A DNA stretch of 64,000 nucleotides from a virus. Every line of letters starts with the position of its first letter. The first letter of the stretch is position 1. The DNA lies in IMG/VR virus record IMGVR_UViG_3300033156_000312, positions 18,046 to 82,045 of that record; one strand, written 5' to 3'. This document shows positions 979-62,104 of the stretch, in pieces. Under the pieces are notes generated by a model, which was not told the DNA's origin, searched no databases, and saw only the letters and a program-made list of their open reading frames with translations. The translations under genes and the position numbers were made by a program.

Positions 979-2868
979 ATGCAATATAAACAAATAATTC
1001 TATCAAAGCTTATTGACTATTTAAAGTATAAAAAAATCAAATTGAGTCGAGGGCATATAAAGACTTTTTCTTGTCCTTTTTGTGGCAAGACAGCAACATT
1101 ATTACCAAACTCTCATTATGTAAATTGTTTTTTTTGTCGTCCTAAAGAAAATTTTGGAGAATATTTTACAGTTATAGATATTGCAAGAAAATTGGATAAA
1201 CCAGATGCTTCAGATGAAGAAATCTTACAATATCTTAAAGATATATTAAACATTAAAGTAATGACAAAACAAGATGAAGTAAAAGTAGAAGATATATTAA
1301 AGAAATATCAAGAATGGGGGTTCGATTTAGTTCCAATAGTTACTAATGGAAAAATTCCCGCAGAAAAAGAATGGACAAAGAAAACCCATAAAGATATAAA
1401 TGAATGGATGCGATGGATAAAAGACGGTCTTAACATAGGAGTTAAAACGGGAAAAGTAAGCAATATTATTGTAGTGGATATAGACCAAAAACCAATACCA
1501 AATGAAATCAAAAATTTATTAAGAGATGATAGCACTTTTATTCAAGAAACAACAAAGGGCTATCATTTATTTTATAAATATGACTCTGACTTACCAAAAA
1601 CTCGTATAGATGAAATCAAAATAGATATAGAGAATGATGGTGGGCAAGTTGTGATATATCCTTCGAGAATTAAAGATAAGGAAAGAAAAATTCAACAATT
1701 TGGAAAGATAGCAGAAATGCCCGAAGAATTAAAAGAATATCTAAAGAAACAAATGACCGTCCCTCGCAAAACTCAAAGTGAAAAGATAAGTGAAGATATA
1801 CAAACAGAAGATTTTAATTTAGGGGTATTGGGAGAAGGACAAAGAAATTCATCTTTAGTAAGAATAGGTGGAATTTTGAGAAAAGAACTTAATAAAAAAC
1901 AAACCGAGTATACTTTACATATGCTTAATAAAGTTTTATGTAAACGACCTCTCCCCGTCAAAGAAATGCGAGCTATGATAAATAGCTTAGATAAATATAC
2001 TCACTTTGATGAAAAAGAGTTGGCTCATAAAGTATTAGAATATTTGAGAGACATAGAAGAAGCTAATAGAAATGAAATTGCTATGGCAATAGTAGGAACT
2101 AATCGAGGAGAGGAAAAAAAGAGAATAGATAAAGCTCTACAATATTTGGTTAAAGAAAGATATGTATCTAAAATAGGGAGAAGTTATTCCATTCGAAAAA
2201 AAGTAGAATGGAAAGAAACTTTGATTAATATAGGAGTTCCGATTGATTTTCAAATGCCATATTTTTATGATTTAATGCACTTTCATTTTGGAGATTTAAT
2301 TATTATCGGGTCAAGAAACGCTACAGGAAAAACTCATATAGCCATGAATATAGTTAAACAATTAGTTGAACAGAAAATTACTCCTTATTATCTTTCTCTT
2401 GAAGGTGGTTCAAGATGGGCAAAAATAGCACTACAACTCGGATTAAAAGAAAGAGATTTTAAGTGGGAAGAAACTTCTAATCCTAATAATGTAGAATTAG
2501 AACAAAATGCTATTACTATAATTGATTGGTTATGTCCAAAAAGTTATGCAGAAACAGATAAAATATTACAAAACTTAAATGATAAAGTGCGTGAAACTAA
2601 AGGAATATTAATTGTTTTTGTTCAGTTACGAGATAATAACGAATGGTTAGCTAAAGATTTAATAAAACAATTCCCTGCTTTTGCTTGTAGATATATTTAT
2701 GATAATGAAGATAGTGGAGAATATGGCAAATTTAAAATAGACAAATTAAGAGATGCTAAAATACGTATTAAAAGTTATGAATTACCAGCATATTATAATT
2801 GGGAAACTAAAGAACTCATATTAGTTTCAGAATTAGAACAAAAAAAGAAATTAGAAAATGAAGAATAA
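979..2868 (+). CDS. Primase-helicase (Zn finger, PrimPol and RecA-like ATPase)
   Basis: A 629-aa replication protein with several domains in order. Residues 32-53 carry CPFC and CFFC, a zinc finger like those of DnaG-type primases. Residues about 110-270 resemble a PrimPol (primase-polymerase) domain: VVDID near 165-169 supplies acidic metal ligands, TTKGYHLFY near 192-198 gives the conserved histidine, and DGGQVVIYPS follows. GEGQRNSSLVRIGGILRK resembles the primase C-terminal helical segment. A winged-helix-like stretch and then a RecA/DnaB-type P-loop GSRNATGKT (444-452) complete the protein. It probably makes primers and unwinds DNA at the phage fork, partnering the family B polymerase at 8614. 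The end overlaps the next gene by 11 bases. Confidence 0.88.
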   Translation: MQYKQIILSKLIDYLKYKKIKLSRGHIKTFSCPFCGKTATLLPNSHYVNCFFCRPKENFGEYFTVIDIARKLDKPDASDEEILQYLKDILNIKVMTKQDEVKVEDILKKYQEWGFDLVPIVTNGKIPAEKEWTKKTHKDINEWMRWIKDGLNIGVKTGKVSNIIVVDIDQKPIPNEIKNLLRDDSTFIQETTKGYHLFYKYDSDLPKTRIDEIKIDIENDGGQVVIYPSRIKDKERKIQQFGKIAEMPEELKEYLKKQMTVPRKTQSEKISEDIQTEDFNLGVLGEGQRNSSLVRIGGILRKELNKKQTEYTLHMLNKVLCKRPLPVKEMRAMINSLDKYTHFDEKELAHKVLEYLRDIEEANRNEIAMAIVGTNRGEEKKRIDKALQYLVKERYVSKIGRSYSIRKKVEWKETLINIGVPIDFQMPYFYDLMHFHFGDLIIIGSRNATGKTHIAMNIVKQLVEQKITPYYLSLEGGSRWAKIALQLGLKERDFKWEETSNPNNVELEQNAITIIDWLCPKSYAETDKILQNLNDKVRETKGILIVFVQLRDNNEWLAKDLIKQFPAFACRYIYDNEDSGEYGKFKIDKLRDAKIRIKSYELPAYYNWETKELILVSELEQKKKLENEE

Positions 2869-3769
2869 AAAATTAAATCAATATATAATATCAGCTAAAA
2901 AGTTAATCAACATGCCTTATAATCAATTAAATTTAGCTAATTACAAGAAAAAATTTGTTAATATTTATAAATTAAAAAATATACACTTTATAAATACTTC
3001 TTCTAAAAAACCTATTAAATTAATGTCTGGACAATCTAAAAATGCAGGTATTATTGCTTCTTCAATTCCATCTTCCAAAAGAAATATTTATTTAATAGGT
3101 AAGGGGATTTTATTTGATGCAGGAGGATATGATTTAAAATCTTCTGGAAAAATGAATAATATGAAATGTGATATGAGCGGAATGGCAATAGCATTTGCTG
3201 TATCTTCTTATTTTAAAAATAATAATGTAATCGCTTATTGTCCTGTCGCTACAAATTTTATACATAATAACCAAATTACTCCTGGCGATTACATCAAGAT
3301 AGGAAATAAAACTGTAGAAATAACAAATACAGATGCAGAAGGTAGATTAATTTTAGCTGAAGCATTAAGTCAACTTACTGTTGAAAAGAATGATATAATT
3401 ATAACAATAGCTACTTTAACAGGAGTATGTGCTTATGCTATTGGAGAAAAAGCAACCGCTTTTATGACTCCAACTAAAGAATTTACTCATAAATACAAAC
3501 TTGCGAGCAAAAAAGCAAACGAACTTGCTTGGAGACTTCCATTATGGGACTATTTACAAAAATCTTTTAATAAAAAAAGAATAACGAATACTTCTAAGGA
3601 AAAATGTGGGACTATTATGGGGGGAATGTTCCTAAAACAATTTATTCCAAACCCCAAAAATTGGATTCATCTCGATATAGCTTATTCGGCTTATGATAAC
3701 AAAAAAAATAAGGCGACTGGAGAACCTATAATGAGTTTAGTTTACTTTGTTGAGGAGTTATTGAAATGA
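2858..3769 (+). CDS. M17 family leucine aminopeptidase homologue
   Basis: A 303-aa protein matching the catalytic domain of leucine aminopeptidase (PepA, family M17). The two-metal site is complete: K82 and D87 in KGILFDAGG, K94, D105 in KCDMSG, and D159/E161/R163 in NTDAEGRL. The spacings K-D (5), K-K (12) and D-D (18) match those remembered for PepA. Later segments ATLTG, WRLPLWDY, GGMFLKQF, WIHLDIA and ATGEP also follow the family order. The N-terminal domain is only about 70 residues, far shorter than in cellular enzymes (about 480-500 aa in total). It overlaps the primase-helicase (11 bases) and the resolvase (4 bases). Its phage role is unknown; peptide turnover, protein maturation or a PepA-like DNA role are possible. 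Confidence 0.88.
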   Translation: MKNKKLNQYIISAKKLINMPYNQLNLANYKKKFVNIYKLKNIHFINTSSKKPIKLMSGQSKNAGIIASSIPSSKRNIYLIGKGILFDAGGYDLKSSGKMNNMKCDMSGMAIAFAVSSYFKNNNVIAYCPVATNFIHNNQITPGDYIKIGNKTVEITNTDAEGRLILAEALSQLTVEKNDIIITIATLTGVCAYAIGEKATAFMTPTKEFTHKYKLASKKANELAWRLPLWDYLQKSFNKKRITNTSKEKCGTIMGGMFLKQFIPNPKNWIHLDIAYSAYDNKKNKATGEPIMSLVYFVEELLK

Positions 3770-18756: not shown

Positions 18757-19545
18757 ATGAGAAAAAGAATAAATAAATTACCGAGCTTTTTGATTATAGG
18801 AATGGCAAAATGCGGAACAACCAGTTTATATAATATGTTAATTCAACATCCAAAAATTCAACCCGCCAAAAGAAAGGAATTATATTTTTTTGAAAAAGAT
18901 GATATATATGAAAAAGGGATAAATTTTTATAGAAAACAATTTAATTCTTGTGCAGAAGATGAAATTTGTGGAGAAGCGACTCCTTATTACTTATATTACA
19001 AAAAGACTCCTGCAAGAGTTAAAAATCTTCTTCCTAATGTAAAATTGATAGTATTATTAAGAAATCCAATTACTCGAAGTTACTCTCATTTTTATGGATA
19101 TTTAAGATTATGTAAAAAGAAAAAGCAAATTCCCATAGCATTAACTTTGAAAGAATTTTTAGAAAAAATTGAAAAAAATCCAGAAGTTAAACTTAATTAT
19201 AGAGGACAAAATTTTCTGAAGAAAAGTATATATGTAGATATGCTCAAACATTGGTTTAAATATTTTTCAAGAAATCAAATTATGATTATTAAAAGCGAAG
19301 ATTTTTTTAAATCCCCTCAATTGATTACGAATACTGTATTTGAATTTTTAGGTCTGTCAAAATATAACGTAAAAATAAGACATGACTTAAAAACCGAAGA
19401 AATGAATTTGGTATTATTAAAAGTCAGGAGATATGCTAAATTATCACAATTTGTCATAGATTATTTGAAAAATTATTATGCTCAATATAATAAACGACTA
19501 TATCAATTAATTGAACGAGACATGAATTGGGAGAATGAAATATGA
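18757..19545 (+). CDS. Sulfotransferase (PAPS-dependent)
   Basis: A 262-aa sulfotransferase. FLIIGMAKCGTTSLYNMLI is the 5'-phosphosulfate loop with the catalytic Lys. RKELYFFE follows, and VKLIVLLRNPITRSYSHFYG is the 3'-phosphate motif. It would move sulfate from PAPS to a hydroxyl or amine on a glycan. PAPS can come from the APS kinase in the very next gene, which overlaps it by 4 bases. No signal peptide is seen, so it acts in the cytoplasm. Confidence 0.88.
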   Translation: MRKRINKLPSFLIIGMAKCGTTSLYNMLIQHPKIQPAKRKELYFFEKDDIYEKGINFYRKQFNSCAEDEICGEATPYYLYYKKTPARVKNLLPNVKLIVLLRNPITRSYSHFYGYLRLCKKKKQIPIALTLKEFLEKIEKNPEVKLNYRGQNFLKKSIYVDMLKHWFKYFSRNQIMIIKSEDFFKSPQLITNTVFEFLGLSKYNVKIRHDLKTEEMNLVLLKVRRYAKLSQFVIDYLKNYYAQYNKRLYQLIERDMNWENEI

Positions 19546-20285
19546 AACTAAAAAAAATCAATAAAAAAACATTTAGTTGGCAAGGAATAGCTTATAGAAT
19601 TTTCGTTATTGGTGTTAATGCTATATTTTTTAAAGTTGGAGCTAAACAAGCTATGCAACAATATGGTGCTATTGGAGCTTCTTTGATTTGGAATAGTATT
19701 AATATGATATTATATTTTTTATATCATGGAGTATTTTTAAGATTATTTTCTTTACGAATTGAAACTAATGGGACTGTAATTTGGTTTACGGGACTAAGTG
19801 GAAGCGGAAAAACTACGATAAGTGATAAATTAGCACAAGAACTATTACAAAGAGGATATAAAGTCCAAAAATTAGATGGAGATATATTAAGAAAAACAAT
19901 CAATAAAGATTTAGGATTTTCATTGGAAGATAGAAAAATCAACTTAGAACGTGCTATTGCAATTGCTAAAATATTAGCAGAAAATAAAATTATAGTATTA
20001 TGTTCTTTTATTTCTCCTGATAGAAATATAAGAAATAAATTCAGAAAACAAATAAAAAATTTCATAGAGATTTATGTTAATTGTCCTTTATCGATTTGTA
20101 AACAACGAGACCCTAAAGGATTATATCGACAGGCATGTGCAGGGAGAATATCGAATTTTACGGGAATTTCTCAAAAATATGAGCCTCCTTTACATCCACA
20201 TATAGAATTAAAAACTGATTTGGAAAGTATAGAAAATAGCACAAAAAAAATTATGAATTATTTAAGAATTCAAAAATTAATTTGA
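19542..20285 (+). CDS. cysC: APS kinase with N-terminal membrane domain
   Basis: A 247-aa fusion. The first about 70 residues (WQGIAYRIFVIGVNAIFFK, IWNSINMILYFLYHGVFL) form two membrane segments resembling the DUF2061 family. The rest is a complete adenylyl-sulfate kinase: P-loop GLSGSGKTT from residue 84, LDGDILR, DLGFSLEDRKINLERA, SFISPDRNIRN and VNCPLSICKQRDPKGLY. It phosphorylates APS to PAPS, the donor for the sulfotransferases at 18757 and 21488. Membrane anchoring would place PAPS synthesis next to lipid-linked glycan assembly. It overlaps the sulfotransferase by 4 bases. Confidence 0.9.
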   Translation: MKLKKINKKTFSWQGIAYRIFVIGVNAIFFKVGAKQAMQQYGAIGASLIWNSINMILYFLYHGVFLRLFSLRIETNGTVIWFTGLSGSGKTTISDKLAQELLQRGYKVQKLDGDILRKTINKDLGFSLEDRKINLERAIAIAKILAENKIIVLCSFISPDRNIRNKFRKQIKNFIEIYVNCPLSICKQRDPKGLYRQACAGRISNFTGISQKYEPPLHPHIELKTDLESIENSTKKIMNYLRIQKLI

Positions 20286-20907: not shown

Positions 20908-21491
20908 TGAATATAACAAACACCAAAAAATTCTTATTTGAAATAGCGGATGTGCTTGAGAAACACAATATAGAATTTTGTATATTTGCAGGCAATCTTT
21001 TAGGTTTAATTAGAGACGGAGATTTCATTCCATGGGATAAAGATATTGATTTAGCAGTGCGAACTCGCTTTTGGAACGATACTAAATTATTCAAAAAAGT
21101 TGCTGAAGATTTAATAAGAAAAAATATTTCACTTGATTATATTTGGAATAATGATATTTTAAGAATAGGAAAATATGGAATTCCTTGTCATATTATTTAC
21201 TTACGAAAAAATAATAAAGAATATTATCAATATGCAAATTCAGGGAAACATAGTTTCCCTTTAGAATGTATGAATACTTTTGATGAAATAAAATTTTGCG
21301 GAAGAAAATTTAAGATTCCTCATAATTCAAAAAAGTTATTAGAAAACACTTTTGGGAAATCATGGAAAATTCCTATGAAAGAATCAGCATGCAAAAGATT
21401 AAATAAAACTAAACTAAATTGGAAATCAGTAATTAATAAAGACAGATTTCATCTGAATTATATTATACCGTTTTTTGAGGAGGAACAATGA
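20907..21491 (+). CDS. LicD-like phosphotransferase
   Basis: A 194-aa protein of the LicD/fukutin nucleotidyltransferase-fold family. FCIFAGNLLGLIRDGDFIPW followed by DKDIDLAV is the hallmark motif with its catalytic aspartates. KIPHNSKKLLENTFGKSWKIP is the later conserved block. Known members attach phosphocholine, ribitol phosphate or similar groups from CDP donors to glycans. The cytidylyltransferase-methyltransferase upstream is a natural source of the donor. Its start shares one base with the HNH gene stop. Confidence 0.85.
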   Translation: MNITNTKKFLFEIADVLEKHNIEFCIFAGNLLGLIRDGDFIPWDKDIDLAVRTRFWNDTKLFKKVAEDLIRKNISLDYIWNNDILRIGKYGIPCHIIYLRKNNKEYYQYANSGKHSFPLECMNTFDEIKFCGRKFKIPHNSKKLLENTFGKSWKIPMKESACKRLNKTKLNWKSVINKDRFHLNYIIPFFEEEQ

Positions 21492-22117
21492 GATATGTCA
21501 TAGGATTTGGGACAGGAAGAAGCGGAACAGTATCTCTCGCTAAATTGCTTAATGATTGTAAAAATGTAAACGTATCTCATGAATTTAGAGATAGAGGAGT
21601 TTATCATAGATTATCATGGAAGTTTAAGCAAAACGAAGCTAAAGAGAGATTAGATAATTTGAGAAAATTAGAAGGTAAATTAGTAGGAGATGTTGCACAT
21701 TATTATTTGAACTATATAGATTATTTTGTAGAAAAATTAGAAACAGATATTAAATTTGTGCTTCTTGGAAGAGATGCCGAAGAAACTGTCAAATCATTTA
21801 TGAAGAAATCAAGAGGATTCAATCATTGGATGTCTCCTCATACAAAAGTATTTAAAGATGGCAAATACAGACATATAGATTGGGATAGAACATTTCCAAA
21901 ATATAATGATGCCACATCAAAGAGACAAGCTATTTCTTTCTATGTAAATCATTATTATATTAGATGTATGGGATTAATAGGTCTATACCCAAAACGAATA
22001 TTTCTATTAGATATAAAAGAAATAAATAATAAGAAAAAACAAAAAGAACTATTTGATTTTCTTGAAATTCCCGAAGAAGATAGAGTATATCAGAGAATTT
22101 GGGAGAATAAATCATGA
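21488..22117 (+). CDS. Second sulfotransferase-like protein
   Basis: A 209-aa P-loop protein. VIGFGTGRSGTVSLAKLLN matches the PAPS-binding loop of sulfotransferases, and FVLLGRDAEETVKSFMKK the 3'-phosphate motif. It differs strongly from the enzyme at 18757, so it probably has another acceptor. It overlaps both neighbours by 4 bases. Confidence 0.8.
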   Translation: MRYVIGFGTGRSGTVSLAKLLNDCKNVNVSHEFRDRGVYHRLSWKFKQNEAKERLDNLRKLEGKLVGDVAHYYLNYIDYFVEKLETDIKFVLLGRDAEETVKSFMKKSRGFNHWMSPHTKVFKDGKYRHIDWDRTFPKYNDATSKRQAISFYVNHYYIRCMGLIGLYPKRIFLLDIKEINNKKKQKELFDFLEIPEEDRVYQRIWENKS

Positions 22118-24423: not shown

Positions 24424-24894
24424 ATGGAAATAAAAAGAGGAGATTTAATTCTTCTATATTATAGATTCGACCCTATTGCTTGGCTTATTAGAAGAAAAAC
24501 ACATAGCAAATGGAATCATATAGGAGTAGCATTGCATGGAACTAAAATTATAGATTTAAGAGCTACTAAGCTTCGCTATGCAAAGATTTCTCGCTTTACT
24601 AAAAGCTGTATTTATAAAATCAAAATCTTACGCATTAAAAATTTAACTCCAGAAATAAGAGAACATTTAATTAACACTCTTGCGAAACAATCAGAAATAA
24701 GACATTATTTCAAGATGTTGTGGAAATTTTTTCTGATGTTCTTCAATATCCCTACTGATATTTGTCTTAGTTGCTCAGAAGTAATCGCACAAGCATTAAG
24801 AGAGAAGAATATAGACATTTGCTCTGGAAAAGATGTGCGATTGATTACTCCCGAAGATTTTAACAAAAGTAAAGAGGTCTATCATGTCTCCTAA
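24424..24894 (+). CDS. YiiX/NlpC-P60-like papain-fold hydrolase
   Basis: A 156-aa protein. EIKRGDLILLYYR, then HSKWNHIGVAL (catalytic His) and IDLRATKLRYAKI, and finally ICLSCSEVIAQAL (catalytic Cys) follow the circularly permuted papain order of YiiX-like proteins. Members hydrolyse amide or ester bonds in cell-wall peptides or lipids. A second member lies at 60604. The ATG at 24424 is preferred over a longer frame because of the tight spacing. Its place among glycan genes suggests action on the envelope. Confidence 0.75.
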   Translation: MEIKRGDLILLYYRFDPIAWLIRRKTHSKWNHIGVALHGTKIIDLRATKLRYAKISRFTKSCIYKIKILRIKNLTPEIREHLINTLAKQSEIRHYFKMLWKFFLMFFNIPTDICLSCSEVIAQALREKNIDICSGKDVRLITPEDFNKSKEVYHVS

Positions 24895-25558
24895 AATAGC
24901 AATTCTTGTTCCATGTTACAATGAAGAAAATCATATTAACAATATGATTTCTAAATTAAATAAATTGTCGTTACCTTATTTGTTTGTAAATGATGGTTCT
25001 ACAGATTGCACTCATAAAATTCTACATAGTATTCAATGCCCTTATATTGAGTATTATCCAAACAAAGGCAAAGGATATGCCATAAAAAAAGGAGCTAAAC
25101 ATTTAATAGCTCAAGGATATGATTATATTTTGATTATAGATTCAGACGAACAAAATGATATGAATGATTATTCACAATTTGTGAATGTTTTAAAAATACA
25201 TCCAGATGCAAAAATTGTTATAGGAAATAGATTTCATAACCCTCAAAACATGCCAACTATAAGATATTATACTAATAAATGCATGTCTTGGATTATATCC
25301 AAATTAGCTCATCAAAAAATAACAGATACTCAATGTGGGTTTAGATTAGTGCATAAAGAGGTATTTAAAATAAGAACAAAAAGTTTACGATTTGAATACG
25401 AATCCGAACAATTAATCAAAGCTGGAAGAAAAGGATATAAAATAGTATCGACTCCTATCAAATGTATTTATTTTAAAGATAGAAAATCCAAAATTAGACC
25501 TTTACAAGATACATTCAGATTTTTTAAAATGTTATTAAATATTTATTTAATAAAATAG
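24884..25558 (+). CDS. Family 2 glycosyltransferase
   Basis: A 224-aa GT2 enzyme. AILVPCYNEENHI is the nucleotide-binding start, FVNDGSTDCT and NKGKGYAIKKGA follow, IIDSDEQND is the metal-binding region (DSD), and ITDTQCGFRLVHKEVF matches dolichyl-phosphate mannose synthase-like enzymes. It probably makes a polyprenyl-phosphate sugar or glycosylates a surface polymer. Its last 16 bases overlap the 3' end of the convergent structural gene, with no terminator between. Confidence 0.88.
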   Translation: MSPKIAILVPCYNEENHINNMISKLNKLSLPYLFVNDGSTDCTHKILHSIQCPYIEYYPNKGKGYAIKKGAKHLIAQGYDYILIIDSDEQNDMNDYSQFVNVLKIHPDAKIVIGNRFHNPQNMPTIRYYTNKCMSWIISKLAHQKITDTQCGFRLVHKEVFKIRTKSLRFEYESEQLIKAGRKGYKIVSTPIKCIYFKDRKSKIRPLQDTFRFFKMLLNIYLIK

Positions 25559-50486: not shown

Positions 50487-52970
50487 TTATTCTTTATATC
50501 CAAAGGCATCTTTGTCAATTTGGTCGTGCATCTTCTTGTAGTAATCATCATCTTTCTTCTTTGACCCAACGACATCAGTGCCTGTTTCAAGTTTTGCCCT
50601 TAAACTTGCATTTTCCATCTCTACTTTGGCTTTAGAGAACTTATCGTCATTAAGAATATCCTCATCAGATATTTCATAATCACCAAGTTCTGCTCGCCTT
50701 TTGAGAATTTCTTGAGCTTTTTCAGCATAAAGCTTTATTTTCTTTTTGGCTTCTATTAATTCTTTTGCCAATTTATTAATACCAGCTTTATGTCTCTCTA
50801 AAAGAGATTTCATCTTTAACTGTCTTGCTCTGCGTAGAATTTTTCTTCTCACAGACTCAACAGATACTCCCAATCTCTTTAGCGTAGCTTTGGGCTTAGG
50901 TTGTCCAAGTCTTGCTAAAGCATTTCTTACATGAGCTTCATCATGTATTGGGAACATTCTAATCTTTCTCATTTTGCCAGTTTTCTTGTTCTTAACCTTT
51001 ACTACTACTGCAAACATTTTATCAGAAATTCCTTTTCGTTCCTGATATGTCAATTTCTTTGCTTCATCTTCTTTCTTAGCTTGTCCTGGGCCTGGGCGGT
51101 CTGCTCGCCTCATTTGTCCACCACATTTAGCACATTTTAAATCTTTACAATGTTTATCAGTCGTTATCTTATATCCGCATTTGATACATGAACAGTCAAA
51201 TTTTTGACTAACTTCAATGTCTTCAAATTCTTCGTTATCTATTATCTCATATTCAAATCGAGCTTCTACTGGCTCTTCAACTTTAGACTCCTCTTTCTTC
51301 TCTTCAGCAGGTTTTTCTTCAGTCTTCTCTTCGACTTTAGTTTCTTCTGCTTTTTCGGGAGTCTTTTCATCTTCTGTTTCTTCGGCTTTAGGAGCTTCCT
51401 TTGCCTCTTCAGCTTTCGGTTCTTCAGTCTTTTCGACCTTCTCTTCTTTAGCTTTTTCGGCTTCTGGTTGCTCTTTCTTCGCCTCTTCAGCTTTATCCTC
51501 GGTCTTTGGAGTCTCTTCTTTCTTCGGCTCTTCGACTGTCGGCTTTTCAACTTTTTCTTCTTTAGGTTCTGCTTTGGCTTCTGTTGGCTTTTCTTCTGCC
51601 TTAGCTTCTTCCTTTTTAGCTTCAGCTTTTCGTTCAGAAATAACTTTCTTATTCTCTTCTTCAGAGCTTTTCAGGAAATCATGCTCTTTCTTTTCATCTT
51701 TTTTCTCAGAAGCCGTAACTTTTTTCTCATCTTTCATTTCTTTTCCTCCTTCTTCCGAAGTTTCTTTCTTATCTGCGATAATTATCTCTTCTATTTTACT
51801 TATTTGTTTATATGATTCTTTAGTAATATCATACGAATATTCTAAACCACATCTCTTACATTTTACAGTTTTTATCTTTAATTTGGATGAACCTACGACC
51901 TCGTTTACTTTACCGCACTGTAAACAAGTAGTTCTACCCATATATATAAAATTCATATTTTGAACTAATTCATTCACTTTCTTTTTAGCCCAAGTAACTT
52001 TGTATTCTTTTGCACAATGCAAACATCTTAATTTTGCACCCGTTTCAGTTTTTTGTAATAATCTCCAACTACTGGTATGACAACTTGGACACATCACCTT
52101 AAAATCAATTAATTGAGGAGGATATATCATTTTACCAGATTTACCAAGAATAGCAAAACATTTAGGACATTTAATGTCTCCCAATAATTTAGGTTCAAAC
52201 TCTTCACCACAATTTTCGCATTTGATTTTTGTAGAAACTTGAGTAGTTATAGTGTTATCTGATTTAGGAGTTTCTTCTGAACTTGTAGTCATATCATCAC
52301 CAATCCAACACGTTTCACCATTGCAAGTTATGATGTCTTCGGCATCATATTTTTTGGCAAATATTAAATTCTCTTCTATTGCTTCAGAATTTTTCTTTGC
52401 TAATTCTAACACTTTAGCATCTTCAAAGGCAGGTTCTTCTTTGAAAAGCAATGCTCCTCCTGCGATTTCTTGCTGAAGTAACTCAAAAGTGCCATCTTTT
52501 AATTTTCTTTTTTTATTTTTCGGACACCAAATTTCATAAGAAGTTGCCAGTTTTTTGGCTTTGAAGAGCTTTTTAGCTTCTTCCCACTCTTCGCCAAAAT
52601 TAGCTTTATAAAATACGCCATAGGCAACAACCATATCTTCCTTTTGTTTATATCTATAATCAATATAATGACCTATTACATACCTTCTTTGATGGTCAAT
52701 ATCAACTGGTTTACCAATCATACTTGGTAAAGCTTTGAGTAATGCCTTTTTTGGTAGACGGGTTCGATTTTTGTTTGCTTTATCTGCAAACGTGTAAATA
52801 GTCTTAAACCCTGCTAAAGCTTTATTGTTTTTTAAATTTATACCTTTTGCTTTAGCTATCTCTATAAGTTCGTCTTTTTCTTTACCCTCTTCAAGAATTT
52901 CTGTCTCTGAATGTTGTTCATAATCCTTTAAAAACTCTATTGCATCTACATTAGTGATTCTATTATTCAT
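50487..52970 (-). CDS. Prohead protease fused to scaffold, with zinc ribbons
   Basis: An 827-aa fusion. Residues about 45-180 are a prohead protease-like domain: MIGKPVDIDHQRRYVIGHY (His 93) and KKLATSYEIWCP (Ser 144) give the expected His/Ser pair. Several zinc ribbons follow (CENCGEEF-CPKC, CPSCHTSSW-CLHC, CLQCGKVN-CKRC). Then comes a long Lys/Glu/Ala/Pro low-complexity stretch (about residues 400-580), another ribbon (CIKCGYKIT-CAKC), and IHDEAHVRNALARLG with a helical scaffold end. It would direct capsid assembly and then self-cleave. The many ribbons are unusual for this family. Confidence 0.78.
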   Translation of the reverse strand: MNNRITNVDAIEFLKDYEQHSETEILEEGKEKDELIEIAKAKGINLKNNKALAGFKTIYTFADKANKNRTRLPKKALLKALPSMIGKPVDIDHQRRYVIGHYIDYRYKQKEDMVVAYGVFYKANFGEEWEEAKKLFKAKKLATSYEIWCPKNKKRKLKDGTFELLQQEIAGGALLFKEEPAFEDAKVLELAKKNSEAIEENLIFAKKYDAEDIITCNGETCWIGDDMTTSSEETPKSDNTITTQVSTKIKCENCGEEFEPKLLGDIKCPKCFAILGKSGKMIYPPQLIDFKVMCPSCHTSSWRLLQKTETGAKLRCLHCAKEYKVTWAKKKVNELVQNMNFIYMGRTTCLQCGKVNEVVGSSKLKIKTVKCKRCGLEYSYDITKESYKQISKIEEIIIADKKETSEEGGKEMKDEKKVTASEKKDEKKEHDFLKSSEEENKKVISERKAEAKKEEAKAEEKPTEAKAEPKEEKVEKPTVEEPKKEETPKTEDKAEEAKKEQPEAEKAKEEKVEKTEEPKAEEAKEAPKAEETEDEKTPEKAEETKVEEKTEEKPAEEKKEESKVEEPVEARFEYEIIDNEEFEDIEVSQKFDCSCIKCGYKITTDKHCKDLKCAKCGGQMRRADRPGPGQAKKEDEAKKLTYQERKGISDKMFAVVVKVKNKKTGKMRKIRMFPIHDEAHVRNALARLGQPKPKATLKRLGVSVESVRRKILRRARQLKMKSLLERHKAGINKLAKELIEAKKKIKLYAEKAQEILKRRAELGDYEISDEDILNDDKFSKAKVEMENASLRAKLETGTDVVGSKKKDDDYYKKMHDQIDKDAFGYKE

Positions 52971-55671: not shown

Positions 55672-55957
55672 TTATAATTTAGAGTAAACTTTATACTCTA
55701 ATGCAGTCCGATTTTCCCAAACACCTGTAGCATATCTATATTCTGAAAGGTCTGACTTCTCTCTCATAATTATTGTCTGTCCTTTTGGATGAACATATCT
55801 ATAATAATTATAAGTTTCTCCTGTTTCTTCTCCAGCTTCATTTTCAGTTACATCATGAAATATATAATCTGTTAATGGGGCTTTCTTCCAATCTGTTCTA
55901 CCTACTGCCCCCCCCCCCCTCTATGAAAAAATTTATAATTTTTTGAATTATACTCAT
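55672..55957 (-). pseudogene. Fibre-family gene interrupted at a 12-G tract (candidate phase-variable)
   Basis: The ATG at 55957 has gagagg upstream and starts right after the portal stop. As sequenced it reads MSIIQKIINFFIEGGGGSR and stops at TAG. With one G fewer the frame stays open for 79 more codons to TAA at 55672-55674. That stretch includes VGRTDWKKAPLTDYIF, GETYNYYRYVHPKG, IIMREKSDLSEYRYATG and VWENRTALEYKVYSKL. The latter half resembles a recurring phage protein type (YxxxG...IMRE...YRYA.G...W.NR..L.Y). The full product would be about 94 aa. Either the locus switches by G-tract slippage, or the tract length was misread. Confidence 0.75.
55908..55919 (-). repeat. Homopolymer of 12 C (12 G on the coding strand)
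   Basis: Twelve consecutive C residues in a genome that is otherwise strongly AT-rich; no other G/C run of this length was seen in the window. It lies in the 5' part of a coding frame, the usual place for contingency-locus tracts. Confidence 0.95.
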
Positions 55958-55958
55958 A

Positions 55959-57791
55959 TTATCCTCTCTTATTCTTTTTGTCAAAAGCTTGTTCTATTTC
56001 TGCCTTTTCTATCTCTTCAATTATTTCTACTATTTGGGCTTTAGTTAAACTCTTTTTTCTTATCCACTTCTTACCACTTTTCTTATATTTAAGTTTAACA
56101 TTCCTCCAAGCACTTTGTCTTGCTTTGTTTTCATCTTTAGTTTCTCTATAAACAGCATTAAAAGTTTTTATCCATATTCTTCTTGCCCCTACTGGGAGAC
56201 TTTTTAATTGTGCAGGGTAATTTTTTAAAGTATAAGGAGCCGTTATTAAATCAGGATTTTTGCTTTTGATTAAATCTATTTGAGTTACAGCTTTTCCACA
56301 TTTAGGACATTTAACCCAGCCCATTCCTGCTTCAGTTTCAGTAAGCATATCAAAAATATTTCCGCATTTTTTGCATTTTGCAAATGCTTCCATTTTTCCA
56401 ATATCATAATTTTTCTTTTCTGGGCCTTTCTTATCATCAGGAATTTCATCTTCTTCTGTATCTAAATCGGCAGGTAAATCTATCCCTTGACCTTCTCGAT
56501 TTTCTCTCACAGGAGGATATAATTTTTCGCTAATGCCTTCCGCCTCTTCCTTCTCTCTTCTATGAACCTCTGTTTTGAAATCAACTTCAGCAATCAATTC
56601 TACTGCCGTTTGAGATGATATTCTACCTCTATCATAAAGAGAACGAATAAGAGTTTTGAAATCTTCAGTCATAAACCCTTTAACGGGAGAAGAACTTATA
56701 TAGAAATTACCATTCATATATTTTATGTGACTTTTGTTTTTTTCTATGATTAGAAGCACTAATTGTTTTAGAATCTGTTTAAAATCTTCTACACCAGTTT
56801 TTACTTCTTCTATAAATACTCTTGGATTTAGGACACTTTCTCTTCTTGATGTCGAAACTGCTTCTACTACATCTATAAATCCAAGTCCTGCAAGTATATT
56901 CTTTTCTGCTACTACAAATAAATCTCTATTAAATAATTTTGCCAAATCTGGAATTACATCTTCAATCGTTTCATCAAATTGAGTAACTCTCATAGGAGAT
57001 TTTACATTTTTTTCTCCTATCTTTGTAGTTTTCAAATCATTCATTAAATCTTGGAATTGTTTTTTAACTTGTAGTAATTCTTCATCACTATAAATTTTGA
57101 TATTATTTCTTGCTAATTCTGCTGAACCCTTTTTAATCAATCTCATATAAGGAATTACCTGTTCAAGCAATTCTATCTCTTTGTTTTTTAGAGATTGTAT
57201 AATTTTCCAGTTGTGATAAACGCCTCTCTTTATTAGATATGGAGTAGGGTATTTATCAAACCATCTCCCATAAGGTCGAGAGAAGATATAACCATTATCC
57301 ATTTTAGTCTCCATACTCTTCCCTAAATAATAATCATAGCTTCCAATAGTCAATACGTCATCATCTTTCACATCTTTAGCGTGAATACTCTCTCCATCCA
57401 CAAAAAACATCTTTGTAGGAAGAATAATTCCATTCTTAGTAGATTCCCATTTAGAGACTCGAAGAACTGGAAAGGAAGAATATTTCCATCGTTCTTTAAA
57501 ATATTCTTTTGCTAAAGGCTTGATTCCTACAGGAGTTTTACCATTATACCCTTTATTAAGAACAAATAACCACTCCTCTAATATTTTGGTAAATCTTTCA
57601 TTATCTGTTTCAATATTAAAGTCCACACAAGCAGTATTTACCGCAAAATCTGTCAAAGAATCAACCAACCCAGAGACATCATCTTCTTGCATTGTTCTCA
57701 CAACTTTTACTTGATTGTGATAATCACTGGGCACAGTGATTTTCTTTAACATCATTGATAATACATAATTAAGATATAAAGAAGTATCCAT
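55959..57791 (-). CDS. Portal protein with C-terminal zinc ribbon and ChaB-like domain
   Basis: A 610-aa protein, starting at ATG 57791 after aaaaggaga; a longer frame to 57857 overlaps the terminase end. The body has the portal-like order: long helices, EYFKERWKYSSFPVLRVSKW, and a stem helix region (LLEQVIPYMRLIKKGSAELA). The C-terminus adds a ribbon (CKKCGNIF-CPKCGK) and LPVGARRIWIKTFNAVYRE then ARQSAWRNVKLKYKKSGKKW, which match the ChaB fold. Such tails are uncommon and may face the capsid interior. The terminase gene lies directly upstream. Confidence 0.85.
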   Translation of the reverse strand: MDTSLYLNYVLSMMLKKITVPSDYHNQVKVVRTMQEDDVSGLVDSLTDFAVNTACVDFNIETDNERFTKILEEWLFVLNKGYNGKTPVGIKPLAKEYFKERWKYSSFPVLRVSKWESTKNGIILPTKMFFVDGESIHAKDVKDDDVLTIGSYDYYLGKSMETKMDNGYIFSRPYGRWFDKYPTPYLIKRGVYHNWKIIQSLKNKEIELLEQVIPYMRLIKKGSAELARNNIKIYSDEELLQVKKQFQDLMNDLKTTKIGEKNVKSPMRVTQFDETIEDVIPDLAKLFNRDLFVVAEKNILAGLGFIDVVEAVSTSRRESVLNPRVFIEEVKTGVEDFKQILKQLVLLIIEKNKSHIKYMNGNFYISSSPVKGFMTEDFKTLIRSLYDRGRISSQTAVELIAEVDFKTEVHRREKEEAEGISEKLYPPVRENREGQGIDLPADLDTEEDEIPDDKKGPEKKNYDIGKMEAFAKCKKCGNIFDMLTETEAGMGWVKCPKCGKAVTQIDLIKSKNPDLITAPYTLKNYPAQLKSLPVGARRIWIKTFNAVYRETKDENKARQSAWRNVKLKYKKSGKKWIRKKSLTKAQIVEIIEEIEKAEIEQAFDKKNKRG

Positions 57792-57804
57792 ACTTTGTCT
57801 CCTT

Positions 57805-59424
57805 TTAAAAGTCTGTTCCCAATCCCCAACTCGAATTTGTGGGAGGGATGTCTTCAAAATCTCTGATTTTCCAAATTATTATTGCCAACACACGAAAAGC
57901 GTCAAATAAATGGTCTCCTATACCACTTGGACATATATACATCTTTCGTGTTCCAGATATTTTAGAGATAACGGCATTGAGTTGTTTATCGAATCTATAG
58001 TCAAGAGGAATTCTGAATTTTTTATCATAGAGAAGTTTTTTTAATCTTCTCACAGACCACTCTGACATATATTCAGTTTTATAAACAGGTTTTCCGTTTT
58101 TGAAAACTATATTATCTTCTTCATCTTTTTCAAAACCAACATTAACTTTCATTGTGCCTGCATAACGAATAACGTGTTTTACTCCATAAATTTTTTCAAA
58201 ATCATCTGCGAGCGTTCTTCCAAGAGCTTCTCCACATTCTACCCCTATAATATTAGCTTGAACGCTATCTATGATATATTTAAAAATTTCAAGTTGTTCA
58301 TCATGCTTTAGATTATAAAGAGTAATATTATATAAATAATTGTATATTTCTTTTACTTCTGATATTACAATAATTTCAGTTCCGCCTGCACCATCTCCAA
58401 CATCAGCACATACAAAAATCTGATTAGCGTTTTTTGGTCTCTCTACAACTATCAAGTCTCTAAATCTCTTATATCTTGTTTTAGGAATCTCAAATCGCTT
58501 GATGTCCTTTTTTTCAATGTAACATTCTCGAACTCTATCCATATCGAATTCCGAGACACCTTCTTCAACTATCTCGCCCTCTACAAAAATACGATAATCA
58601 ATAGAATCTTCTCCACCGTAATGCTCTACTCTGTCTTTTTTTTCTTCTTTGTCCCAATGAGGATTGACATATTGAGGAAGATTAATAACTTTGCCTCGAT
58701 TTTTTAAATCATAGAACATCTGCCCAGCAGGCATATATTTTGTAAAATTAGTCATACCTGCAAATCGTTCTATGACTCCAAGCTCTGAAGCAGATTCTTT
58801 TCGTTTATTAAAAACTTCCTCTGTTTCAAAACTCATTTCTTCACCCCAGAGTTTCTTAAAGTGCTTTTGAAAGAACTGGTCGCCTGGGTCTTTTTTGGCT
58901 TTCAGATTCATATTTACGCCGTCAAGCATCCATCCATTCTTTGCTTCTATATGATAATTAGGATAAGTTCTAATCTGTCCCTGTCTCCATTGTTTAAGAA
59001 TAGGATGCTTATCTATCCCGTGTTTTATAAAGTCTAATACTCCACGTAAATGAATTAAGTCCATAGAGGTGAATCCACAAGGATAACCATCGTCATGAAG
59101 CATAGATAGAGGAACATCTAACTTCTCCGTGCACAGTGTCTTTCCATATTTACGGCCACCAAAATTATATACATCTGCTACATTTTTTCTTAATCGAAAT
59201 TCTTGTTTTTTAGAAAGACTGTAATGTTTTGCGATTCCTTCGAAATCAATTAATGATTCAAATGAAATCATTGGTAATTGATAATTTCTTAATCGCCCAA
59301 ATACATCTTCACGAAATTCAGAAATATTATCAAAATTAGAAAAAAGACATTCAATCAGACATACTGGATTATGCCATGCTTTCATGAAAGACAAATTTTC
59401 TTCATTGATTTTTTCTAAAACCAT
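57805..59424 (-). CDS. terL: Terminase large subunit
   Basis: A 539-aa packaging motor. Walker A is GGRKYGKT (about residues 94-101), and the Walker B region is LWGEEMSFE. The C-terminal RNase H-like nuclease has ADVGDGAGG, VECGEALGR and DHLFDAFR with its acidic residues. It pumps DNA into the prohead and cuts concatemers. The portal gene follows and a putative small subunit precedes it. Confidence 0.88.
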   Translation of the reverse strand: MVLEKINEENLSFMKAWHNPVCLIECLFSNFDNISEFREDVFGRLRNYQLPMISFESLIDFEGIAKHYSLSKKQEFRLRKNVADVYNFGGRKYGKTLCTEKLDVPLSMLHDDGYPCGFTSMDLIHLRGVLDFIKHGIDKHPILKQWRQGQIRTYPNYHIEAKNGWMLDGVNMNLKAKKDPGDQFFQKHFKKLWGEEMSFETEEVFNKRKESASELGVIERFAGMTNFTKYMPAGQMFYDLKNRGKVINLPQYVNPHWDKEEKKDRVEHYGGEDSIDYRIFVEGEIVEEGVSEFDMDRVRECYIEKKDIKRFEIPKTRYKRFRDLIVVERPKNANQIFVCADVGDGAGGTEIIVISEVKEIYNYLYNITLYNLKHDEQLEIFKYIIDSVQANIIGVECGEALGRTLADDFEKIYGVKHVIRYAGTMKVNVGFEKDEEDNIVFKNGKPVYKTEYMSEWSVRRLKKLLYDKKFRIPLDYRFDKQLNAVISKISGTRKMYICPSGIGDHLFDAFRVLAIIIWKIRDFEDIPPTNSSWGLGTDF

Positions 59425-61258: not shown

Positions 61259-62104
61259 TTACACTAAACCTTTTTTTCTAAGTTTTCTTCTCTTTCTTAA
61301 AGTAAGATTCGCAACTCGAAGTATAATAGTATTCTTAAATTCTTCAGGGTCATCAATGTCTATCATTTGGATAGCATCCATTAATGTGCGACGCATTTCC
61401 TTGTATGAAAGAAAACCATATCCATTTTGACCCCAACCTGTTCCCCAAGAATTTTTGAACTTATATAATTTTGTTTCATCATCATAACCTACAAGAGCTA
61501 TAGCATGTCCTCCAAGATACCCTTGAATTCTCTCACACCAATTAGCGTCAGGGATATGACCATTTTTCTGTCTATACCAATTTCTATATACTAAAACTCC
61601 AATATGAAGAGGCCCAAATTTTACTAATGAAGCTTTCAGTTCCTTTTCATTTGTAATTCTAACATATACAGGTTCTATCTTATACTTTAAAGCGTTATGA
61701 TAAGCTCCTGAATATGCTTGTCTTGGCTTGTTTGCTTCATAAGGCCAAAATTTTTCTTCACAAATTCCTTTATCAACTAATACTTTAGCGACAGCTTTTA
61801 AAGTAGTTCCTTCTTTATGTCCGCTGATTTTTTTCGCTTCTTCATATAAAAAACGTTCTGATAAATCTATATATCTATCATAATCATGAAATTCCATCCA
61901 CTCTTTAATTGCTGTTCCTGCAAAACCTGCACATGCCCCTTCTCCGCCTTGATTTCTAACTTCAGACATTTCAGCAGTATAATCTATTTTACTTGGCAAT
62001 TTATCTATAATATCACTAACAAGTGTTGTTACCAAATAGTCTCTCTTGTCAAATGGGGATTTATATAATCCCAATCGGCTTTGTAAATACTTGGTTTTTC
62101 TCAT
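61259..62104 (-). CDS. Papain-like (C1A) cysteine protease
   Basis: A 281-aa protease of the papain fold. EVRNQGGEGACAGFAGTAI holds the oxyanion Gln and catalytic Cys, GGHAIALVGYDDE the catalytic His, and FKNSWGTGWGQNGYGFLSY the catalytic Asn and the usual ending. No secretion signal is visible. A phage-encoded C1A enzyme is uncommon; it could cut envelope peptides at lysis or degrade host proteins. Its start overlaps the small basic protein stop by 4 bases. Confidence 0.88.
   Translation of the reverse strand: MRKTKYLQSRLGLYKSPFDKRDYLVTTLVSDIIDKLPSKIDYTAEMSEVRNQGGEGACAGFAGTAIKEWMEFHDYDRYIDLSERFLYEEAKKISGHKEGTTLKAVAKVLVDKGICEEKFWPYEANKPRQAYSGAYHNALKYKIEPVYVRITNEKELKASLVKFGPLHIGVLVYRNWYRQKNGHIPDANWCERIQGYLGGHAIALVGYDDETKLYKFKNSWGTGWGQNGYGFLSYKEMRRTLMDAIQMIDIDDPEEFKNTIILRVANLTLRKRRKLRKKGLV

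What the first reader, a model, noticed from the sequence alone, without database searches (positions are those of the whole stretch)
55672..55957. G12 tract switches a fibre-family gene out of frame by one base
A run of 12 G in a strongly AT-rich genome splits an otherwise intact gene. With 11 (or 8 or 14) G the frame is open for about 94 codons and the second half resembles a known phage protein type. Homopolymer slippage is the classic mechanism of phase-variable adhesins. Here it sits between portal and a beta-helix fibre gene, so it could vary an adsorption or capsid-surface protein.
Basis: partly seen in the sequence, partly recalled or inferred. Interest (0 to 1): 0.85.

Follow-up and report, generated by a model that had tools for sequence, protein, structure and literature searches.

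The report
Poly-G switch in phage fibre module
A phage known only from environmental DNA carries a run of 12 G that puts a small virion gene, next to its fibre gene, one base out of frame; related phages carry similar runs in the same gene module, some in frame and some out, so these viruses probably switch parts of their fibre apparatus on and off by copying slips.

Summary
C12 (G12 on the coding strand) lies at 55908-55919, the only G/C run longer than 6 in the window. It puts an otherwise intact 94-codon gene (55957-55672) one base out of frame; 8, 11 or 14 G would be open. The start is real: relatives L007/L011 share the ribosome-binding site, start codon and N-terminus, and have no tract. 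The gene is not a fibre. It encodes a small unnamed family found in nine genomes of this clade, always just upstream of a gene with a conserved fibre-type N-terminus and never without it (9/9 against 0/10), so it is probably a fibre adaptor or chaperone. The strongest new evidence is in the kin: 23 related viral records (1.2 Mb) hold only four G-runs of 8 or more, one each in four genomes (G12, G12, G12, G10). All lie on the coding strand, between the portal-like and protease-like genes, in accessory genes; two are in frame, two are not. That supports slipped-strand phase variation of a fibre module, as shown for Campylobacter Fletchervirus phages. Read-level variation in this phage was not available, so switching itself is inferred; a miscalled tract length is the main rival.

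The parts
55908..55919 (-). G12 homopolymer (C12 on + strand), codes for a Gly linker between the N-terminal helix and the conserved domain; proposed slippage site
55672..55957 (-). Small fibre-partner gene (adaptor or chaperone), 94 codons if 11 G, stops after 19 codons with the assembled 12 G
   Evidence: linkage to fibre gene
55962..55968 (-). Ribosome-binding site GAGAGGA, same sequence in L007/L011
54433..55659 (-). Fibre-type gene, 408 aa, N-terminus MKEYKYVFNPYTG conserved in kin; N-terminal 115 aa align at 41% with the beta-helix fibre of L004; no Pfam hit of its own
55959..57857 (-). Portal-like gene (assigned by gene order; not named by profiles), upstream neighbour
57805..59424 (-). 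Large-terminase-like gene (assigned by gene order and motifs; not named by profiles)
50487..52970 (-). Prohead-protease/scaffold-like gene (assigned by gene order), far border of the interval that holds all tracts in kin

Best explanation
The G12 tract is a hypermutable simple repeat. During replication it gains or loses G and so switches a small virion-module gene on (8, 11, 14 G) or off (other lengths). The protein is most likely an adaptor or assembly chaperone for the fibre encoded just downstream, so a phage population would contain particles with and without a working form of that fibre. The assembled contig shows an off length. Shown: the tract, the intact domain in the other frame, the real start, the strict linkage to the fibre gene, and tracts in both phases in the same module of related phages. 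Inferred: that length varies within this phage's population, that the protein serves the fibre, and that the switch affects adsorption.
For: The tract is unique in the record and far above chance. The gene is intact apart from the tract frame, with a start confirmed by kin. Among 23 related viral records only four have a G run of 8 or more, one each, all on the coding strand and all between the portal-like and protease-like genes; placement by chance about 6e-5 for three independent genomes. Tract states: window G12 off, L160 G12 off, L161 G10 on, G006 G12 on. The same tip gene has 12 and 10 G in two contigs of one metagenome. Small gene and fibre-type gene co-occur 9/9 against 0/10 and moved together in L006. 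The same mechanism is established for receptor-binding proteins of Campylobacter phages (PMC11868660, PMC11959909).
Against: No read-level length distribution. All eight other distinct members of the small family lack the tract. The L160 copy has an extra in-frame stop besides its tract, so at least one off copy may be decayed. The role of the small protein rests on linkage only; no fold or family match.
Confidence: 0.62

Rival explanations
1. Assembly or sequencing error: the true tract is uniformly an in-frame length and the gene is always on. The tract would still be real, only its length miscalled.
For: Homopolymers of 12 G are hard for PCR and short reads; the error needed is a single base; the gene is otherwise intact.
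Against: A/T runs up to 8 do not break genes in this record. The tract itself, and those of three kin in the same interval, remain unexplained.
Confidence: 0.2
2. Fixed null allele: a chance expansion has inactivated a dispensable gene, with no switching.
For: The gene is absent from about half of the clade, so it is dispensable. L160 shows an off copy with a second lesion.
Against: No second lesion in the window gene. Kin tracts are also found in frame. Chance expansions would not all fall in one module.
Confidence: 0.09
3. Expression-level slippage: polymerase or ribosome slips on the G tract and makes some full-length protein from the 12-G template, so the tract sets protein dose rather than an on/off state.
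For: G runs are slippery; tail-assembly genes of lambda and Mu use programmed -1 or -2 shifts (own knowledge).
Against: The simple -1 shift leads straight to a stop (it equals 13 G). Kin encode the protein in one frame, and other tract genes are in frame at 10 and 12 G, needing no shift.
Confidence: 0.07

Closest known systems
Poly-G phase-variable receptor-binding proteins of Campylobacter Fletchervirus phages (Sorensen et al. 2021, Cell Rep 35:109214; not held, described in PMC11868660, PMC11959909, PMC8766974)
   Same: Long G tract inside a coding frame of a phage host-binding module in an AT-rich genome; length sets on or off.
   Different: Here the tract is in a small partner gene of the fibre (window), a tip gene (L160/L161) or the last gene before the protease (G006), not in the receptor-binding gene itself as far as shown; the phages are an uncultured clade without detectable sequence kinship to phage records; switching has not been shown.
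Simple-sequence contingency loci of bacteria (e.g. poly-G loci of Campylobacter jejuni)
   Same: Tract near the 5' end of a gene for a surface function; frame-dependent.
   Different: Phage gene, and one tract per genome rather than dozens.
Other phage host-range switches: Bordetella phage diversity-generating retroelement; invertible fibre segments of Mu and P1 (named in PMC10579305)
   Same: Vary the host-binding apparatus within a population.
   Different: Proposed agent here is replication slippage only; no such retroelement or invertible segment was searched for systematically.

Membership tests
Simple-sequence-repeat phase-variable locus | Repeat tract long enough to slip, inside or before the coding frame | tested here: met
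   G12 at 55908-55919
Simple-sequence-repeat phase-variable locus | Gene intact apart from the tract frame; on lengths differ by three | tested here: met
   93, 94, 95 codons at 8, 11, 14 G; invariant residues kept
Simple-sequence-repeat phase-variable locus | Tract length differs between copies of the same gene | tested here: inconclusive
   Not testable for the window gene (no other tract-bearing copy). For a module gene of kin: 12 G in L160, 10 G in L161, same metagenome, but the copies differ elsewhere too
Simple-sequence-repeat phase-variable locus | Reversible switching at high rate within a population | not testable with these tools
   needs reads or culture
Fletchervirus-type poly-G receptor-binding protein system | Tract lies in the receptor-binding protein gene | tested here: not met
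   Window tract gene is a small partner gene; no fibre or receptor-binding family match
Fletchervirus-type poly-G receptor-binding protein system | Kinship of the phage to Fletchervirus | tested here: not met
   No tblastn match of the terminase-like protein among 50,697 phage records at E 1e-3
   No Pfam, PHROG or NCBIfam match; Foldseek best hit is an uncharacterised 89-aa phage protein, E 0.05-0.14
Fibre adaptor or chaperone (functional role) | Gene strictly linked to, and moving with, the fibre gene | tested here: met
   9/9 against 0/10 genomes; pair relocated together in L006
Fibre adaptor or chaperone (functional role) | Physical interaction with the fibre or portal | not testable with these tools
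   needs complex prediction or experiment

The most novel reading that the evidence does not exclude
In this uncultured phage clade, switching lineages keep a single long G tract, always in the accessory fibre module between portal and prohead protease but in a different gene each time (fibre partner, fibre-tip-like gene, last gene before the protease), placed where it also codes for a glycine linker. Selection would then repeatedly re-create one frame switch in the host-binding module, and switching a fibre's partner protein would remove a fibre without touching the fibre gene.
Probability: 0.4. Interest if true: 0.7.

Novelty: new variant of a known kind. Interest (0 to 1): 0.56.

Why it matters
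Phage-encoded phase variation by poly-G slippage is described for Campylobacter phages, where a review calls it an exceptional case (PMC11959909). An independent, uncultured clade with what looks like the same device, placed in a fibre partner gene and recurring in different genes of one module, suggests the mechanism is more general and could be found by searching for rare long G tracts in phage structural modules. It also warns that automated annotation will call such genes broken or miss them, as happens here with 12 G.

Tried and rejected
Phage records: no match of the 94-aa protein, the terminase-like protein or family members; the last two returned nothing even at E 10, so I treat them as weak negatives. 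The genome-contig scan with the small family found nothing; with the terminase-like family it gave two MAG contigs, one 100% identical to an IMG/VR contig (L010/L017), so the Lokiarchaeota and Cyanobacteria labels are probably bin contamination and I draw no host from them. A search for small-family members with a G8 tract at the same place found five stretches, none related. The tract as Shine-Dalgarno or alternative start region: rejected, no ATG/GTG/TTG in the right frame follows until deep in the domain (sequence). A special RNA fold at the tract: not supported (z -1.45). -1 ribosomal shift: leads to a stop. The near-identical upstream parts of L160 and L161 were considered as a recombination signal, but both contigs begin in that shared stretch, so the choice of sequence is biased. 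A loose NPxTG pattern gave one hit in L168, in a different gene at another place, counted as chance. The names portal, terminase, protease and capsid rest on gene order; profile searches did not name them.

Full report
Observation. The window has a C12 run at 55908-55919 on the + strand, i.e. G12 in a minus-strand gene. It is the only G/C run above 6 in 64 kb and the only G10 in the whole 82,045-base viral record. In 100 dinucleotide shuffles none had as many G8 matches; a first-order model expects about 1e-4 such runs. The gene starts at ATG 55957, directly after the stop of the portal-like gene, behind the ribosome-binding site GAGAGGA. Changing only the tract length in a script gives open frames of 93, 94 and 95 codons at 8, 11 and 14 G and early stops at other lengths; the assembled 12 G stops after 19 codons.

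Is the start real, and is the gene otherwise sound? Two relatives, L007 and L011 (99.98% identical to each other), have the same ribosome-binding site and start and a homologous N-terminus (MNIFQRITSKFKGV against MSIIQKIINFFIEGGG), continue in a single frame for 90 codons, and have AAAGGAGT where the window has the tract. The window's domain after the tract keeps all residues that are invariant in the family. The only lesion is the frame at the tract. 47 A/T runs of 7 or more lie in intact ORFs, so the record is not generally bad at homopolymers.

What the gene is. It is not a fibre. It belongs to a small family (76-94 aa) with no Pfam, PHROG or NCBIfam name and a predicted four-stranded beta structure of moderate confidence (pLDDT 73-74), whose best structural match is an uncharacterised phage protein (Foldseek E 0.05-0.14). 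Members occur in nine distinct genomes: the window's, L001, L002, L004, L006, L007/L011, L021, L026 and the L161 record. In all nine it is followed directly by a gene whose N-terminus reads NPxTGxxQxV or a close variant; in ten kin genomes without the small gene no such fibre gene lies between the portal-like and protease-like genes, as far as the contigs reach (Fisher p 1e-5; the genomes are related, so the p-value overstates independence). In L006 the two genes sit together in a different place, between the terminase-like and portal-like genes. The fibre bodies differ widely: beta-helix in L002 and L004, fn3 in L026, tail or tail-fibre profiles in others. The window's own fibre aligns with the N-terminus of the L004 beta-helix fibre at 41% but has no Pfam hit itself. 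Several kin without this pair have another small gene of about 100 aa after the portal-like gene, in L008, L010 and L166 followed by another long gene. I therefore read the small protein as an adaptor or chaperone dedicated to the fibre; this is inference from linkage.

The tract in relatives. All eight other distinct members of the small family lack a G tract. But a search of 24 kin records for G8 found, besides a 2.1-Mb bacterial MAG (G010), only four tracts in 23 viral records totalling about 1.2 Mb, one each in four genomes; G7 adds only three isolated sevens in the 19 records re-searched. The four are: the window's G12; G12 in G020/L160; G10 in G021/L161; G12 in G006/L173. All are on the coding strand and all lie between the portal-like and the protease-like gene (L160's contig ends at the tract, so there only the protease side is seen). 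L161's record closes on itself by a 99-base end overlap; joined there, the order is portal-like, small gene, NPxTG gene, a 90-aa gene, a 193-aa gene with the G10 tract in frame, protease-like gene. The 193-aa gene has a weak C1q-like C-terminus (E 0.018, below the curated cut-off). L160 is the same gene in another contig of the same metagenome, with 12 G, out of frame by one, and with a further in-frame TAA. In G006 the tract joins two halves of a 173-aa gene just before the protease-like gene and is in frame. So two tracts are on and two off. The chance that the window, G006 and G021 tracts all fall in this interval is about 6e-5 if placed at random.

Mechanism. Best reading: slipped-strand mispairing at the G tract switches an accessory virion gene. 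In the window lineage the target is the fibre's partner protein; in the L160/L161 and G006 lineages it is another gene of the same module. Steps shown: tract, frames, intact domain, linkage, both phases among kin. Steps inferred: variation within one population, role of the small protein, effect on adsorption. The main rival is a one-base error at the homopolymer with the gene always on (0.20); it would not explain the tracts in kin. A fixed null allele (0.09) and expression-level slippage (0.07) are less likely.

Wider context. Many are at contig ends or in GC-rich DNA. Some repeat the window's design: AT-rich contigs with starts such as MPVINRLPIGGGG or MATSVITPIGGGG followed by an uncharacterised protein, mostly off by one as assembled (L048 and L138 of one contig; three genes in L117), and genes with tail or tail-fibre profiles in L112, L129 and L136. 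Because the pattern demands 11 G, on-states at 10 are missed, so no rate can be drawn. In one methyltransferase case near-identical flanks carry 14 and 15 G in different contigs, so such tracts do appear with different lengths in wild phages, subject to the same caution about homopolymer calls.

Known systems. Poly-G phase variation of receptor-binding proteins is established in Campylobacter Fletchervirus phages (Sorensen et al. 2021, Cell Rep 35:109214, not held; summarised in PMC11868660, PMC11959909, PMC8766974). The window works like that system but is not shown to be a member: the tract is not in the receptor-binding gene and no kinship of the phages is detectable. The carrier encodes a bacterial-type RecA, so a bacterial host is likely, but the host is unknown.

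Noticed in passing
L046, L049, L057, L059, L069, L071, L073, L108, L115, L120, L121, L140, L146, L150, L152: A recurrent class of phage cytosine-methyltransferase-like genes with a start-proximal G11-G15 tract after which two different frames are both open and long (one frame matches DNA methyltransferase PHROG 363, the other PHROG 1008). L046 has 14 G where L120 and L152 have 15 G with 99-100% identical flanks.
   Followed up: partly
L048 and L138 (one contig, IMGVR_UViG_3300011977_000007), L117 (IMGVR_UViG_3300028048_000085): AT-rich contigs with three G11-G14 tract genes each, starts MPVINRLPIGGGG / MATSVITPIGGGG, uncharacterised products, mostly one base out of frame as assembled; possible phase-variable arrays.
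   Followed up: partly
window 18757-20285 and 21488-22117: Sulfotransferase, adenylylsulphate kinase and a second sulfotransferase-like gene in a phage, near a glycosyltransferase at 24884-25558.
   Followed up: no
window 61259-62104 and 2858-3769: Papain-family cysteine protease gene and an M17 aminopeptidase gene in the phage.
   Followed up: no
window 55959-57857, C-terminal part: The C-terminus of the portal-like protein family matches a solved ChaB structure (1sg7, E 6e-4), and in L026 it ends in an amphipathic stretch resembling the N-terminus of the small partner protein.
   Followed up: no
L017 (Lokiarchaeota MAG contig) and L010 (IMG/VR): The MAG contig and the viral contig are 100% identical over 6,779 bases; the archaeal label is probably a binning error, though an archaeal host of that virus is not excluded.
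   Followed up: partly
L006 1391-6252: Small gene and fibre gene sit between the terminase-like and portal-like genes instead of after the portal-like gene: the pair moves as a unit.
   Followed up: yes
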